A stretch of DNA of 34,896 nt, from assembly GCA_035308905.1 (NCBI GenBank), contig DATGFS010000015.1, positions 1 to 34,896 of the forward strand, read 5' to 3'. The DNA comes from a bacterium (GTDB taxonomy: Bacteria; Sysuimicrobiota; Sysuimicrobiia; Sysuimicrobiales; Segetimicrobiaceae). A program made the position numbers and the translations under genes. The stretch's first letter is position 1, and each line of letters opens with the position of its first letter. Positions 1-4,742 of this stretch are shown piece by piece. Under the pieces are notes generated by a model that was given only the letters and a program-made list of their open reading frames with translations, made no database searches and had not been told where the DNA came from.

Positions 1-935
1 AGGCGATCGGCGCCATCGGCATCCTCCGGGACATGCGCGAGCTCGACAAAGCCCGCGCCTACGCGGAGAGCCTGATCAAGAACGCCCCGGACCCCGTGTT
101 CGTCTCCGACCTCGAAGGCAAGATCCTAGAATCCAACGACGCGGTCTCGCAGCTCCTCGGGTTCCGCCGAGACGAAGTGATCGAGCAGTCGCTCTCCCGG
201 TTCATCTCGCCCGAGGAGACCCGCGAGTTCCTCGCCGCGCTCCGCGAGGTCGTCGAGCGCGGCGTGATCCGGAACGTCCGCCTCAACCCGCGGTCCGCGA
301 CCGGCGAGGTCATTGCGACGACGCTCAACGCCTCGGCCCTGCGCGACTCGGACGGCAAGGCGATCGGCGCCATCGGCATCCTCCGGGACATGCGCGAGCT
401 CGACAAAGCCCGCGCCTACGCGGAGAGCCTGATCAAGAACGCCCCGGACCCCGTGTTCGTCTCCGACCTCGAAGGCAAGATCCTGCACACCAACGACGCG
501 GTGTCGGAAGTGCTCGGCTTCCGCCGAGACGAGGTGATCGAGCAGTCGCTCTCCCGGTTCATCTCGCCTCAGGAAACCCGCGAGTTCCTCGCGGCGGTCC
601 GCGAGGTCGTCGAGCGCGGCGTGACCCGGAACGTCCGCCTCAACCCGCGCGCCGCCACCGGCGAGGTCATTCCGACCGGTCTCAACGCATCTGCCCTTCG
701 TGATTCCGACGGTAAGGTGATCGGCGTCATCGGGATCCTCCGCGACATGCGCGCCTACGAGCGCGTCGTCCGTGACCTCGAGAAGTCGAAGCTCGAGCTT
801 CAAGAAAAGATCCTCGAGCTCGAGAAATTCGAAGAGGTCGTCGTCGGTCGCGAGATCAAGATGATCGCGCTCGAAAAAGAGGTGGAGCGGTGGCAGAGCG
901 AAGTGGAGCGGCTGCGGGGCGACACGCAGCAGTAG
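1..935 (+). CDS. PAS-repeat sensor protein without kinase domain (5' partial)
   Basis: The reading frame is open from base 3 and its start lies upstream of the window. It encodes the tail of one PAS unit, two complete PAS units (from 33 and from 390) and a terminal charged coiled coil of about 60 residues (747-932). Each PAS unit shows the usual core: NAPDPVFVSDLEGKIL, then NDAVSxxLGFRRDEVIEQSL, ending in IGxIGILRDM. The coiled coil carries the VVGREIKMIALEKEVE linker often found between PAS arrays and kinases, but no H-box or ATPase domain follows. I infer a soluble sensory subunit that must pass its signal to a separate kinase, most simply the one encoded 32 nt downstream. No membrane segment is visible in this part. 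PAS ligands cannot be predicted. The PAS identification is firm; the partner is inferred from gene order. Confidence 0.85.
   Translation, partial: AIGAIGILRDMRELDKARAYAESLIKNAPDPVFVSDLEGKILESNDAVSQLLGFRRDEVIEQSLSRFISPEETREFLAALREVVERGVIRNVRLNPRSATGEVIATTLNASALRDSDGKAIGAIGILRDMRELDKARAYAESLIKNAPDPVFVSDLEGKILHTNDAVSEVLGFRRDEVIEQSLSRFISPQETREFLAAVREVVERGVTRNVRLNPRAATGEVIPTGLNASALRDSDGKVIGVIGILRDMRAYERVVRDLEKSKLELQEKILELEKFEEVVVGREIKMIALEKEVERWQSEVERLRGDTQQ
33..746 (+). repeat. Tandem in-frame PAS-coding repeat, period 357 bp
   Basis: Two complete 357-bp units (33-389 and 390-746, 119 codons each) lie head to tail. The first 95 nt or so of both are identical; the rest differs by scattered synonymous and a few amino-acid changes. 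Bases 1-32 match the end of unit 1 almost exactly, so at least one more copy lies upstream. The end of unit 2 is more diverged. This is a recent intragenic duplication series, not a transposon: there are no terminal inverted repeats or target duplications. Confidence 0.93.
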
Positions 936-954
936 GGGTGGACGCCCGCCCGGC

Positions 955-960
955 AGGAGG
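955..960 (+). promoter_or_regulatory. Ribosome binding site that fixes the histidine kinase start
   Basis: A perfect AGGAGG lies 7 nt before GTG 968. The more upstream in-frame GTG codons at 890 (inside the PAS gene) and 938 have no comparable site, so 968 is chosen as the kinase start. Confidence 0.7.
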
Positions 961-2227: not shown

Positions 2228-4386
2228 CGCCGCCCCGCGTCCTCGTCGTCGACGACGATGCCGCGTTGCTCGAGGCGCTGCCCGAGACGATTCGCCTGCG
2301 CATGCCGGGCACCGCCGTGGAAATCTGCGCGTCGGCCGCGCCGGCCCTCGAGCAGATCGCCGCGGTCGATTACGACGCGATCGTGAGCGACATCAAGATG
2401 CCCGGCATGGACGGTCTGACGCTGCTGTCCCGGGTGCGCGGCCTCCGTCCGGACACGCCCGTACTCCTGATCACCGGCCACGGCGAACACGACCTCGCGA
2501 TTCGCTCGCTGCGCGCCGGCGCCTACGACTACGTGCAGAAGCCGATCGACCGCGAGTATTTCATCGCCTCGCTCGGCCGCGCCGTCCAGGTGCGGCAGCT
2601 GCGGCGCCAGATCAGCGATCAGCAGCACGCGCTGTCGCGGCACGCCGGCCGCCTCGAGGAGACCGTCCAGGAGCGCACGACGGAGCTGCGGCAGACGGTC
2701 GAGCAGCTGCGGGCGCTGACGGACGTCGCCGCGGCCATTCACGGCGCCCGCGGCGTCGACGAGGTGTTGAAGTCGGTCGTCGACGCGGCCTGCCGCCTGT
2801 CGGGCGCGAGCCTGGCCACGGCGGGCTTTTACCGCGGCGACGATCAGGCCGCCATGCTGGCCGACCCGGGGCGCTGGGCCACCGCGATCGCGCCGGAGAG
2901 CGTCGGCCTGCGGATCCCCCGGGAGGACGTCGTCGGGATCTTCGCGGCGATCTGCGGCATCGAGCACGGCCCCGTCGACCTGCCGGCCGCGACCTTCGCG
3001 CCGCTCGCGCGGGCCGCGGCGAACGGCGACGGACCCTGGTCGTCGTTCTTTGCGCTCCCCGTCCGCGGACGGCTCGGCCAACCGCTGGGCGCGATGGTGC
3101 TGGCGCGGCCCGCCGGCCGGGTGTTCACCGCCGAAGTGCGCGTGCAGATCGAGGCGGTCGCGCTGCAGGTTGCGGTCGCGCTTGAGAACACGCTGCTCTA
3201 CGAGCGGGCGCGCGGCACGGCCGAGACCCTGCAGCGCAGCCTGCTGCCGGAGCGCCTGCCCGACATTCCCGGGGTCGTCCTCTCGGCCCGGTATTTGCCG
3301 GGGAACCACGAAGCGGTCGGCGGCGACTGGTACGACGTGCTGACGCTGCCGAACGGACACATCGGGCTCGTCATCGGAGACGTGGCGGGGCGGGGCGTGT
3401 GGGCGGCGGCCGTCATGGGGCAGTTGCGCAACGCGCTCCGGGCCTACGCTCTCGAAGGCAACCCGCCGGCCCTCATCGCGGAGCGCCTGACGCGGCTCGT
3501 CGACGACCGGACGATGGCGACGCTCGTCTACCTGATGGTCGATCCGGAGACCCGGGCGATCCGGTACCTGAACCTCGGCCATCTGCCGCCCCTCATCGTG
3601 GGGCCGGAGGGCGTCACGCGCCTCACCGCCGGCGCGCCGCCGCTCGGCGTGCGCGGGATCGCGTACCGGGAGGACACCGCGACGCTCGCTCCGAGCTCGA
3701 CCATCATGGTCTACACGGACGGGCTCCTCGAAGTCCGAGGCCAGAGCATCGACGAGGGGTTCGCGCGCGTGACGGAGGTCCTGCGCCGGTGCGGCGACGC
3801 GCCCGTCGACGATCTCGTCGACCGCGTGCTCGCGTCGGCGCTCGCCGGACGGACGTCCGAGGACGACGTGGCGCTGGTCGCGCTGCGGCTCTCGCCCCTC
3901 AGCCCGGAGCGCCTGGACATCCGGCTGCCGGCGGTGCCGGCGTCGCTGGCGCAGATGCGGCAGACGCTGCGGCGCTGGCTCAAGTCGGCCGACGTGGCCC
4001 CGGAGGAGGCCTACGACGTCATGACGGCGATCAATGAAGCCTGCGCGAACGCGATCGAGCACGCGTACGGCCCAACCGACGGATTGTTCGAATGCGAGGT
4101 GGCGCTGGCCCACGGCATGCTGACCGCCACGGTCCGCGATATCGGCCGGTGGCGCACCGCCCGGGGACAGTACCGAGGCCACGGACTGAAACTGATGGAG
4201 GCCCTTATGGGAGAGGTTCAGGTGGTGCAGGGTTCGACCGGAACGGCGGTACAGATGCGCAAACGAATCGCCCACGCGGCGGGAGGCGCATCTTTGGCCC
4301 TGGGCCCACGGCGTGAACCAAGGATGCCCGCAGGCCCAGAAGCGGCCGGCGGCGCCGCGCCGGACGGCGGACGGGTCCACGTATGA
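2224..4386 (+). CDS. Response regulator-GAF-SpoIIE phosphatase-HATPase fusion (RsbU/RsbW-like)
   Basis: 720 residues with four domains. REC spans about 5-120, with acidic pocket D11/D12, phospho-acceptor D56 in VSDIKMPGMDG and K107. A coiled coil (120-165) leads to a GAF domain (165-325). A PP2C-type SpoIIE phosphatase (338-556) has metal motifs GGDWYD (366-371), GDVAGRG (385-391), YTDG (497-500) and SEDDVAL (545-551). A C-terminal HATPase_c of the anti-sigma kinase type (565-680) has N-box NEACANAIEHAY (604-615). By family knowledge, RsbU/SpoIIE phosphatases remove phosphate from a STAS-domain serine and RsbW/SpoIIAB-like ATPases add it; here both sit on one chain under REC control. The substrate should be the STAS protein encoded next, whose start overlaps this stop by 4 nt. 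The last 35 residues are an unstructured Gly/Ala/Pro tail. No sigma factor gene is in view. Confidence 0.93.
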   Translation: MTPPRVLVVDDDAALLEALPETIRLRMPGTAVEICASAAPALEQIAAVDYDAIVSDIKMPGMDGLTLLSRVRGLRPDTPVLLITGHGEHDLAIRSLRAGAYDYVQKPIDREYFIASLGRAVQVRQLRRQISDQQHALSRHAGRLEETVQERTTELRQTVEQLRALTDVAAAIHGARGVDEVLKSVVDAACRLSGASLATAGFYRGDDQAAMLADPGRWATAIAPESVGLRIPREDVVGIFAAICGIEHGPVDLPAATFAPLARAAANGDGPWSSFFALPVRGRLGQPLGAMVLARPAGRVFTAEVRVQIEAVALQVAVALENTLLYERARGTAETLQRSLLPERLPDIPGVVLSARYLPGNHEAVGGDWYDVLTLPNGHIGLVIGDVAGRGVWAAAVMGQLRNALRAYALEGNPPALIAERLTRLVDDRTMATLVYLMVDPETRAIRYLNLGHLPPLIVGPEGVTRLTAGAPPLGVRGIAYREDTATLAPSSTIMVYTDGLLEVRGQSIDEGFARVTEVLRRCGDAPVDDLVDRVLASALAGRTSEDDVALVALRLSPLSPERLDIRLPAVPASLAQMRQTLRRWLKSADVAPEEAYDVMTAINEACANAIEHAYGPTDGLFECEVALAHGMLTATVRDIGRWRTARGQYRGHGLKLMEALMGEVQVVQGSTGTAVQMRKRIAHAAGGASLALGPRREPRMPAGPEAAGGAAPDGGRVHV

Positions 4387-4742
4387 CGACGGCCGTGGAA
4401 GTTCGGATGACGGAAGAGGCCGGCATTCCGGTCGCGGCGCTCGACGGCGAGATCGATCTCGCGAACGCCGCGGAAGTGCGCAGCCAGATCTTCGGGATGG
4501 TCTCCAACACCGCGCCCGGCCTCGTCCTCGACCTGAGCGGGGTCACCTACCTCGACAGCCGCGGCGTGCAGCTCATCCTCGAGCTCGCCGAGCGCCTCAA
4601 GATGCGGCATCTCAAGTTCCGCGTCGCGATGCCGGAGAAGTCCCTGATCCGGCGGATCTTGTTGTTGACCCACGTGGACGCGGTGGTGCCGCTGGACACG
4701 AGCGTCAATCAGGCGCTGACGATGATGCGGGAAAGCGCCTAG
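4383..4742 (+). CDS. STAS-domain anti-sigma factor antagonist (RsbV/SpoIIAA-like)
   Basis: 119 residues, the normal size for a stand-alone STAS antagonist. The signature is VLDLSGVTYLDSRGVQLILE, with S59 directly after Asp58. This matches the serine phosphorylated in SpoIIAA (Ser58) and RsbV (Ser56) by their anti-sigma kinases; the next residue, Ser or Thr in those proteins, is Arg here. The GEIDLANA segment (22-29) is the usual first strand-turn. When unphosphorylated, such proteins bind the anti-sigma kinase and free its sigma factor. It is translationally coupled (ATGA) to the phosphatase/kinase fusion, which is presumably its regulator. It ends 4 nt from the stop of a convergent gene, leaving no room for a terminator. 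Confidence 0.92.
   Translation: MTTAVEVRMTEEAGIPVAALDGEIDLANAAEVRSQIFGMVSNTAPGLVLDLSGVTYLDSRGVQLILELAERLKMRHLKFRVAMPEKSLIRRILLLTHVDAVVPLDTSVNQALTMMRESA

What the first reader, a model, noticed from the sequence alone, without database searches (positions are those of the whole stretch)
1..4742. Split-sensor relay into a one-chain partner switch
The operon separates sensing (PAS array), kinase (no sensor domain) and output (REC-GAF-PP2C-HATPase), then adds the STAS target. Both the phosphatase that activates the STAS protein and an RsbW-like kinase that would inactivate it are fused to one REC domain, so a single phosphorylation could flip the balance. Overlaps of 4 nt enforce fixed stoichiometry. 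Phosphatase and ATPase fusions of this kind are known, but together with a kinase-less PAS-array gene and a sensor-less kinase this looks like a distinct arrangement.
Basis: partly seen in the sequence, partly recalled or inferred. Interest (0 to 1): 0.6.

Follow-up and report, generated by a model that had tools for sequence, protein, structure and literature searches.

The report
Split sensor relay driving a partner switch
A soil bacterium carries a four-gene signalling line in which a separate repeat-built sensor protein and a sensor-less kinase control a one-chain phosphatase/kinase switch; the switch end resembles known regulators, but the sensor-plus-kinase front end turns out to be an old, unusually well-conserved cassette found in many phyla and wired to different outputs.

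Summary
The operon is real and conserved. The same order, PAS array > sensor-less kinase > REC-(GAF)-PP2C-HATPase > STAS, occurs in ten genomes of the window's bacterial order (ANGP1/CSP1-3 kin) with all catalytic residues kept. The window cuts the PAS gene: its other half ends contig C16, and the assembly broke inside near-identical PAS repeats. Complete homologues have 3-4 PAS units plus a coiled coil and no kinase domain. The output half is a known kind: REC-PP2C-HATPase with a STAS partner is the HsbR-HsbA/CrsR-CrsA layout, and PP2C-RsbW is solved in Rv1364c. So the "one-chain switch" is not new. The front end is the new part. PAS array + this kinase + REC recurs in Ktedonobacteria, Gemmatimonadetes, Acidobacteria, Actinobacteria and others, ending in a second histidine kinase or a sigma-54 activator instead of PP2C/STAS. 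The PAS protein is ~80% identical across phyla (RpoB in the same genomes ~57%), with silent sites saturated. Kinase-seeded searches found the PAS gene beside the kinase in 33 of 34 loci. About 16 other loci fuse the PAS array directly to a histidine kinase and lack both the coil and the kinase's repeat helix. Signal, phosphotransfer polarity and sigma client remain unknown.

The parts
3..935 (+). PAS-array protein, 3' part only (open at contig end): tail of one PAS, two complete PAS units (about 81-419 and 438-776, spacing 357 nt), then C-terminal coiled coil
   Evidence: Pfam PAS E=8e-42; 357-nt direct repeat, 93% identical; 5' half at end of contig C16; complete homologues 3-4 PAS, no kinase domain
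753..932 (+). C-terminal coil of the PAS protein (AYERVVRDLEKSKLELQEKILELEKFEEVVVGREIKMIALEKE...), nearly invariant in split systems and absent from PAS-kinase fusions; proposed kinase-docking element
   Evidence: alignment A5, coil/fusion partition; docking is inference
938..2227 (+). Sensor-less histidine kinase; phospho-acceptor His at 1526-1528; GTG start at 938 is the likeliest, GTG 890 possible
   Evidence: HATPase_c E=1e-21, HisKA 24.8 bits; His invariant in 10 orthologues
1153..1421 (+). Repeat helix of the kinase: R-x-A-[ML]-[LI]-H-I-x-x-D motif, four copies (two in some orthologues)
   Evidence: repeat family D2 (three copies found by DNA); alignment A2
2224..4386 (+). REC-GAF-PP2C-HATPase response regulator (REC 2239-2568 with D56 at 2389-2391; GAF 2749-3186; PP2C/SpoIIE 3352-3891; RsbW-like HATPase_c_2 3928-4263)
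   Evidence: Pfam; catalytic residues invariant; model matches Rv1364c RsbU-RsbW and P. aeruginosa RssB
4383..4742 (+). STAS anti-sigma-factor antagonist-like protein; phosphorylatable Ser59 at 4557-4559
   Evidence: PF01740 E=4e-15; TIGR00377 ant_ant_sig 59.6 bits over cut-off 53.45; D58-S59-R60-G61 invariant

Best explanation
A cytosolic split-sensor two-component system driving a partner switch. The array of near-identical PAS units senses an unknown cue and has no catalytic domain. Its conserved C-terminal coil docks on the repeat helix of the co-encoded sensor-less kinase and sets its autophosphorylation at H197. The phosphoryl group passes to D56 of the REC domain, whose coiled-coil linker shifts the balance between the PP2C domain (dephosphorylates Ser59 of the STAS protein) and the RsbW-like domain (phosphorylates it). 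STAS with free Ser59 would then sequester an anti-sigma factor: either a free RsbW, or the C-terminal domain itself as in CrsR. Shown here: gene order and conservation, intact active-site residues, kinase/PAS co-occurrence, exchangeable outputs. Inferred: PAS-kinase docking, phosphotransfer, polarity, sigma client. Polarity is open: REC phosphorylation activates the phosphatase in HsbR but lowers it in RsfR.
For: Gene order conserved in ten genomes with catalytic residues invariant. The PAS array and this kinase type occur in exactly the same 11 of 386 genomes, and 33 of 34 kinase-seeded loci in Gemmatimonadota and Ktedonobacteria carry the PAS array beside it. About 16 loci fuse this PAS array to HisKA-HATPase-REC in one chain, showing that the array feeds a kinase; these fusions lack both the coil and the repeat helix, whereas 59 split loci have both. 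PP2C-HATPase matches the Rv1364c RsbU-RsbW structure (E=1e-61; Foldseek 3.6e-25). REC-PP2C-HATPase + STAS works this way in HsbR-HsbA/CrsR-CrsA (PMC6482189). A Planctomycetia locus independently places a PAS-array kinase next to a REC-PP2C gene (L092).
Against: No biochemical data. HisKA is just below Pfam's cut-off. The C-terminal ATPase could be an anti-sigma domain without kinase activity. No sigma or anti-sigma gene lies beside the operon; the genome has 16 STAS hits, several free RsbW-like genes and 15 sigma-region-2 hits, so the client is not determined. The PAS-array structure prediction failed (pLDDT 43), so docking could not be examined. 10 of the 11 co-occurring genomes are related, which weakens that statistic.
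Confidence: 0.68

Rival explanations
1. CrsR-like: the C-terminal HATPase is itself the anti-sigma factor, binding a sigma factor directly until the STAS protein displaces it; no separate RsbW client is needed.
For: In CrsR, and to a degree in HsbR, domain 3 binds RpoS (PMC6482189). No sigma or RsbW gene is beside the operon in the loci inspected.
Against: E605/N609/D639 are kept, as expected of an active kinase. The genome holds free RsbW-like genes, one directly upstream of a SigB/F-type sigma gene with no STAS gene seen within the 5.5 kb read (L176).
Confidence: 0.25
2. The PAS array is a scaffold or assembly platform rather than a sensor: identical repeats cluster several kinase dimers, and the cue enters elsewhere (e.g. 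the GAF domain of the response regulator).
For: Units are nearly identical in one gene and 73 of 113 positions are >=90% conserved across phyla, with no conserved Cys, His or Trp, so no LOV or FixL-type cofactor site. Sensor domains normally diverge fast. Copy number varies from 2 to 5.
Against: Fusions of the same array to a kinase occupy the position of a sensor. GAF is absent in the G024 orthologue, so it is not the obligatory input.
Confidence: 0.25
3. Ordinary two-component operon with a redundant PAS gene; adjacency is a coincidence of gene clustering.
For: PAS, histidine kinase and PP2C-HATPase families are all abundant in this genome.
Against: Same order in many genomes and phyla; 33 of 34 kinase-seeded loci; PAS conservation exceeds that of the kinase used as bait.
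Confidence: 0.03

Closest known systems
HsbR-HsbA (Pseudomonas aeruginosa) and CrsR-CrsA (Shewanella oneidensis)
   Same: REC-PP2C-HATPase(kinase/anti-sigma) in one chain with an adjacent STAS antagonist; REC controls which activity dominates (PMC6482189)
   Different: Input there is hybrid kinases through HptB; here a PAS-only protein and a sensor-less kinase in the same operon, plus a GAF domain between REC and PP2C in most orthologues
SypE-SypA (Vibrio fischeri)
   Same: One response regulator with opposing serine kinase and phosphatase acting on a STAS protein (family papers PMC10120452, PMC4517449, found; domain layout from own knowledge)
   Different: SypE has the kinase N-terminal and PP2C C-terminal around a central REC (own knowledge); order here is REC-GAF-PP2C-HATPase
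Rv1364c (Mycobacterium tuberculosis)
   Same: RsbU phosphatase and RsbW kinase fused; best solved match to the PP2C-HATPase half (3ke6, E=1e-61)
   Different: Rv1364c carries PAS and STAS in the same chain and no REC (own knowledge)
RsfS-RsfR (M. smegmatis) and RsbK-RsbY (Bacillus cereus)
   Same: Histidine kinase phosphorylates a REC-PP2C that sets the phospho-state of a STAS antagonist (PMC10950880)
   Different: No HATPase in the regulator; sensor is part of the kinase; REC phosphorylation reduces phosphatase activity in RsfR

Membership tests
HsbR/CrsR-type one-chain partner switch | REC, PP2C and HATPase in this order in one chain | tested here: met
   Pfam; GAF inserted in most orthologues, absent in the G024 orthologue
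HsbR/CrsR-type one-chain partner switch | Adjacent single-domain STAS antagonist with phosphorylatable Ser | tested here: met
HsbR/CrsR-type one-chain partner switch | Phosphotransfer to REC changes kinase/phosphatase balance on STAS | not testable with these tools
   D56 conserved only
HsbR/CrsR-type one-chain partner switch | Orthology to HsbR/CrsR rather than convergent domain fusion | not tested
   HsbR/CrsR sequences were not compared; best solved match of the PP2C-HATPase half is Rv1364c, not a Pseudomonas protein with the same three domains
SpoIIE/RsbU PP2C phosphatase | PF07228 with metal-binding aspartates | tested here: met
   E=4e-43; GGDWYD, GDVAGRG, TDG and DD motifs kept; fold match SpoIIE, RssB
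RsbW/SpoIIAB serine kinase | HATPase_c_2 with N-box E-x3-N and D-x-G | tested here: met
   PF13581 E=1e-21; E605, N609, D639, G641 invariant; solved RsbW 6m36 matched at E=5e-13
Anti-sigma factor antagonist (RsbV/SpoIIAA) | TIGR00377 above cut-off and DS motif | tested here: met
   59.6 bits vs 53.45; D58-S59 invariant
Orthodox two-component sensor kinase | Sensor domain in the kinase chain | tested here: not met
   only HisKA and HATPase_c found; N-terminus is a repeat helix
LOV or FixL-type haem PAS | Photoactive Cys motif, or conserved proximal His | tested here: not met
   no conserved Cys, His or Trp in 170 units

The most novel reading that the evidence does not exclude
The front end is an undescribed class of split sensor kinase: an obligate pair of a kinase-less PAS array and a repeat-helix kinase, spread over many phyla, in which every PAS unit is under near-invariant selection because identical units stack into, or recruit, a defined multi-kinase assembly. 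Outputs (partner switch, second histidine kinase, sigma-54 activator) are swapped behind an unchanged sensor.
Probability: 0.35. Interest if true: 0.8.

Novelty: new variant of a known kind. Interest (0 to 1): 0.6.

Why it matters
Sensor domains usually evolve fastest and outputs slowest; here it is reversed. A PAS protein more conserved across phyla than RNA polymerase beta in the same genomes, with its repeats homogenised inside each gene and different outputs attached, suggests a common signal or a rigid assembly shared by many soil bacteria. The split form is present in isolates such as Ktedonobacter racemifer and Ktedonosporobacter rubrisoli, so the question of what it senses can be tested directly. 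It also gives a natural set of split and fused versions of one sensor kinase.

Tried and rejected
Recent horizontal transfer as the reason for the PAS identity: rejected as a sufficient explanation, because fourfold sites between groups are near the level expected from composition (0.414, excess 0.05) while within a gene they exceed it by 0.23. Ascertainment bias (PAS-seeded scan): tested with kinase-seeded searches; PAS still averages 80% vs 63.5% for the kinase used as bait. A GGDEF output partner: the downstream GAF-GGDEF gene (4747-7008, minus strand) is kept only in a sister genome, not across the order. AlphaFold of the PAS array failed (pLDDT 43) and was not used. The full-chain arrangement of the REC-GAF-PP2C-HATPase model is uncertain (pTM 0.51), so only domain-level matches were used. 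Literature searches for a described PAS array of this kind found nothing, in an open-access library only. MAG titles may misassign some contigs.
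Full report
Observation. The window is the first 34,896 bases of contig C15 of a 4.0-Mb genome. Pfam confirms PAS, HisKA-HATPase_c, REC-GAF-SpoIIE-HATPase_c_2 and STAS in that order. The PAS gene is open at the contig start. Searching the genome with it found the missing half at the very end of contig C16, in the same orientation; the two contigs end inside a 357-nt repeat that is 93% identical, which explains the break. C16 carries PAS1 and PAS2 with the N-terminus; the window carries two further units and the coil. 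A sister genome (G002) has four units in one ORF, another (G001) three. None of the complete homologues has a kinase domain. Junctions 2224-2227 and 4383-4386 are 4-nt ATGA overlaps; the PAS/kinase junction is not (kinase GTG most likely at 938).

Conservation in kin. tblastn of the four proteins against regions from related genomes gave the same order in G001, G002, G005, G017, G018, G024, G030, G038 and G040. Records of the same kin are titled ANGP1 or Armatimonadetes. Ten of 43 genomes of the order carry the PAS array, so the distribution is patchy. Identity of window proteins to orthologues: PAS about 84-98%, kinase 60-86%, regulator 47-82%, STAS 45-92%. Catalytic residues are invariant: H197 of the kinase, D56 of REC, the PP2C aspartates, E605/N609/D639/G641, and D58-S59 of STAS. 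GAF is missing in the G024 orthologue.

The front end is a widespread cassette. A scan of 84,980 genomes with the PAS alignment returned 79 loci (of 148 relatives) in Ktedonobacteria, Actinobacteria, Rokubacteria, Acidobacteria, Gemmatimonadetes, Proteobacteria, Planctomycetes and others. In most, the same type of sensor-less kinase (50-71% identical) and a REC protein follow. Outputs differ. REC-PP2C-HATPase + STAS was found only in the window's order. REC-(PAS)-HisKA-HATPase occurs in Ktedonobacteria, Actinobacteria and a Rokubacterium. REC or REC-REC with a sigma-54 activator and Fis-type HTH occurs in Gemmatimonadetes, Acidobacteria and a Betaproteobacterium bin (Pfam; motif scan). A kinase+REC tree of 60 loci clusters mostly by phylum (13 label changes against 34.6 in shuffles) and needs at least three output changes.

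Fusions and partition. In Rokubacteria, Acidobacteria gp6, some Deltaproteobacteria and a Planctomycetia bin the same PAS array is fused to HisKA-HATPase and, in the ones read through, REC (L092, L097, L103, L131). A motif partition over loci gives 59 with coil and repeat-helix kinase and not fused, 16 fused with neither, and no fused locus with the coil; the remainder are contig-end cases or diverged motifs. This supports the coil and the repeat helix as the two halves of a docking interface that is needed only when sensor and kinase are separate chains. This step is inference.

Obligate pairing. Among 386 genomes the PAS array (E<=1e-60) and the full kinase type occur in the same 11; the one extra kinase hit (G065) lacks the repeat helix. 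Ten of the 11 are related, so independent kinase-seeded searches were run: 5 of 395 genomes of another phylum (that of G103, a Gemmatimonadetes record) and 27 of 47 Ktedonobacteria-class genomes. Of 34 loci fetched, 33 have the PAS array beside the kinase, PAS averaging 80.4% identity to the window's against 63.5% for the kinase and 61.8% for REC. As the kinase was the bait, PAS conservation is not a product of the search.

Constraint on the PAS protein. Over 172 split units, 73 of 113 columns are at least 90% conserved. In the same genome pairs, window PAS is 79-84% identical to other phyla while RpoB is 51-67% (one broken ORF, L123, excluded). Fourfold-site identity between groups is close to composition (excess 0.05) but within a gene exceeds it by 0.23. 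So the protein is ancient and strongly constrained, and units within a gene are homogenised by recent duplication or conversion. No conserved Cys, His or Trp exists, which argues against LOV and FixL-type haem cofactors. The nearest solved structure by sequence is a sensor protein, 3ewk (E=3e-10), which from memory is the MmoS tandem PAS; this is a weak lead only.

Output half. The PP2C-HATPase pair matches Rv1364c RsbU-RsbW (E=1e-61; Foldseek 3.6e-25), and REC-PP2C matches P. aeruginosa RssB. HsbR-HsbA and CrsR-CrsA have REC-PP2C-kinase/anti-sigma plus a STAS partner, with REC phosphorylation switching HsbR to phosphatase (PMC6482189). In RsfR the effect of REC phosphorylation is opposite (PMC10950880). 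So polarity here cannot be read from homology. The STAS protein passes the TIGR00377 cut-off. Candidate clients: a free RsbW directly upstream of a SigB/F-type sigma gene (L176), or the regulator's own C-terminal domain as in CrsR. The genome has at least four other PP2C-HATPase chains, each with a STAS domain close by, so cross-talk is possible.

Verdict. The claimed novelty lies not in the one-chain switch, which is known, but in its attachment to a conserved split-sensor cassette with exchangeable outputs. New variant of a known kind; interest 0.6.

Noticed in passing
window 1 and contig C16 end (L041 10115): The assembly breaks inside near-identical PAS repeats; C16 and C15 are very probably adjacent. 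The last ~100 nt of C16 hold likely consensus errors (REIDERG, RNGRL).
   Followed up: partly
L071 and L079 (Ktedonobacter racemifer): Two PAS-array operons in one genome: units within L071 share 81% of fourfold sites, but only 32% with L079 although the proteins are 87% identical; a clean case of array homogenisation.
   Followed up: partly
L092 (Planctomycetia bin) 6580-10600, with 4035 minus: PAS-array kinase fusion beside a REC-PP2C gene, with a gene on the other strand that looks like an HATPase-PP2C (RsbT/RsbX-like) fusion: an independent link between this PAS array and partner switching.
   Followed up: partly
G000 contigs C21, C22, C32, C48: Four paralogous PP2C-HATPase chains without a detected match to this REC, each with a STAS domain close downstream: several partner switches in one genome.
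   Followed up: partly
L176 1594-2989 (G000 C30), minus strand: RsbW-like gene directly upstream of a SigB/F-type sigma gene, with no STAS gene seen in the 5.5 kb read; candidate client of an unlinked STAS protein.
   Followed up: partly
window 4747-7008, minus strand: Membrane protein with predicted GAF-like and GGDEF regions, convergent with the operon; kept in sister genome G002 but replaced by an EamA-like gene in G001.
   Followed up: partly
L046, L047, L049, L050 downstream of the cassette: An XRE-type helix-turn-helix regulator with a long C-terminal region lies 0.1-5 kb downstream of the STAS gene in all four f2-family loci.
   Followed up: no
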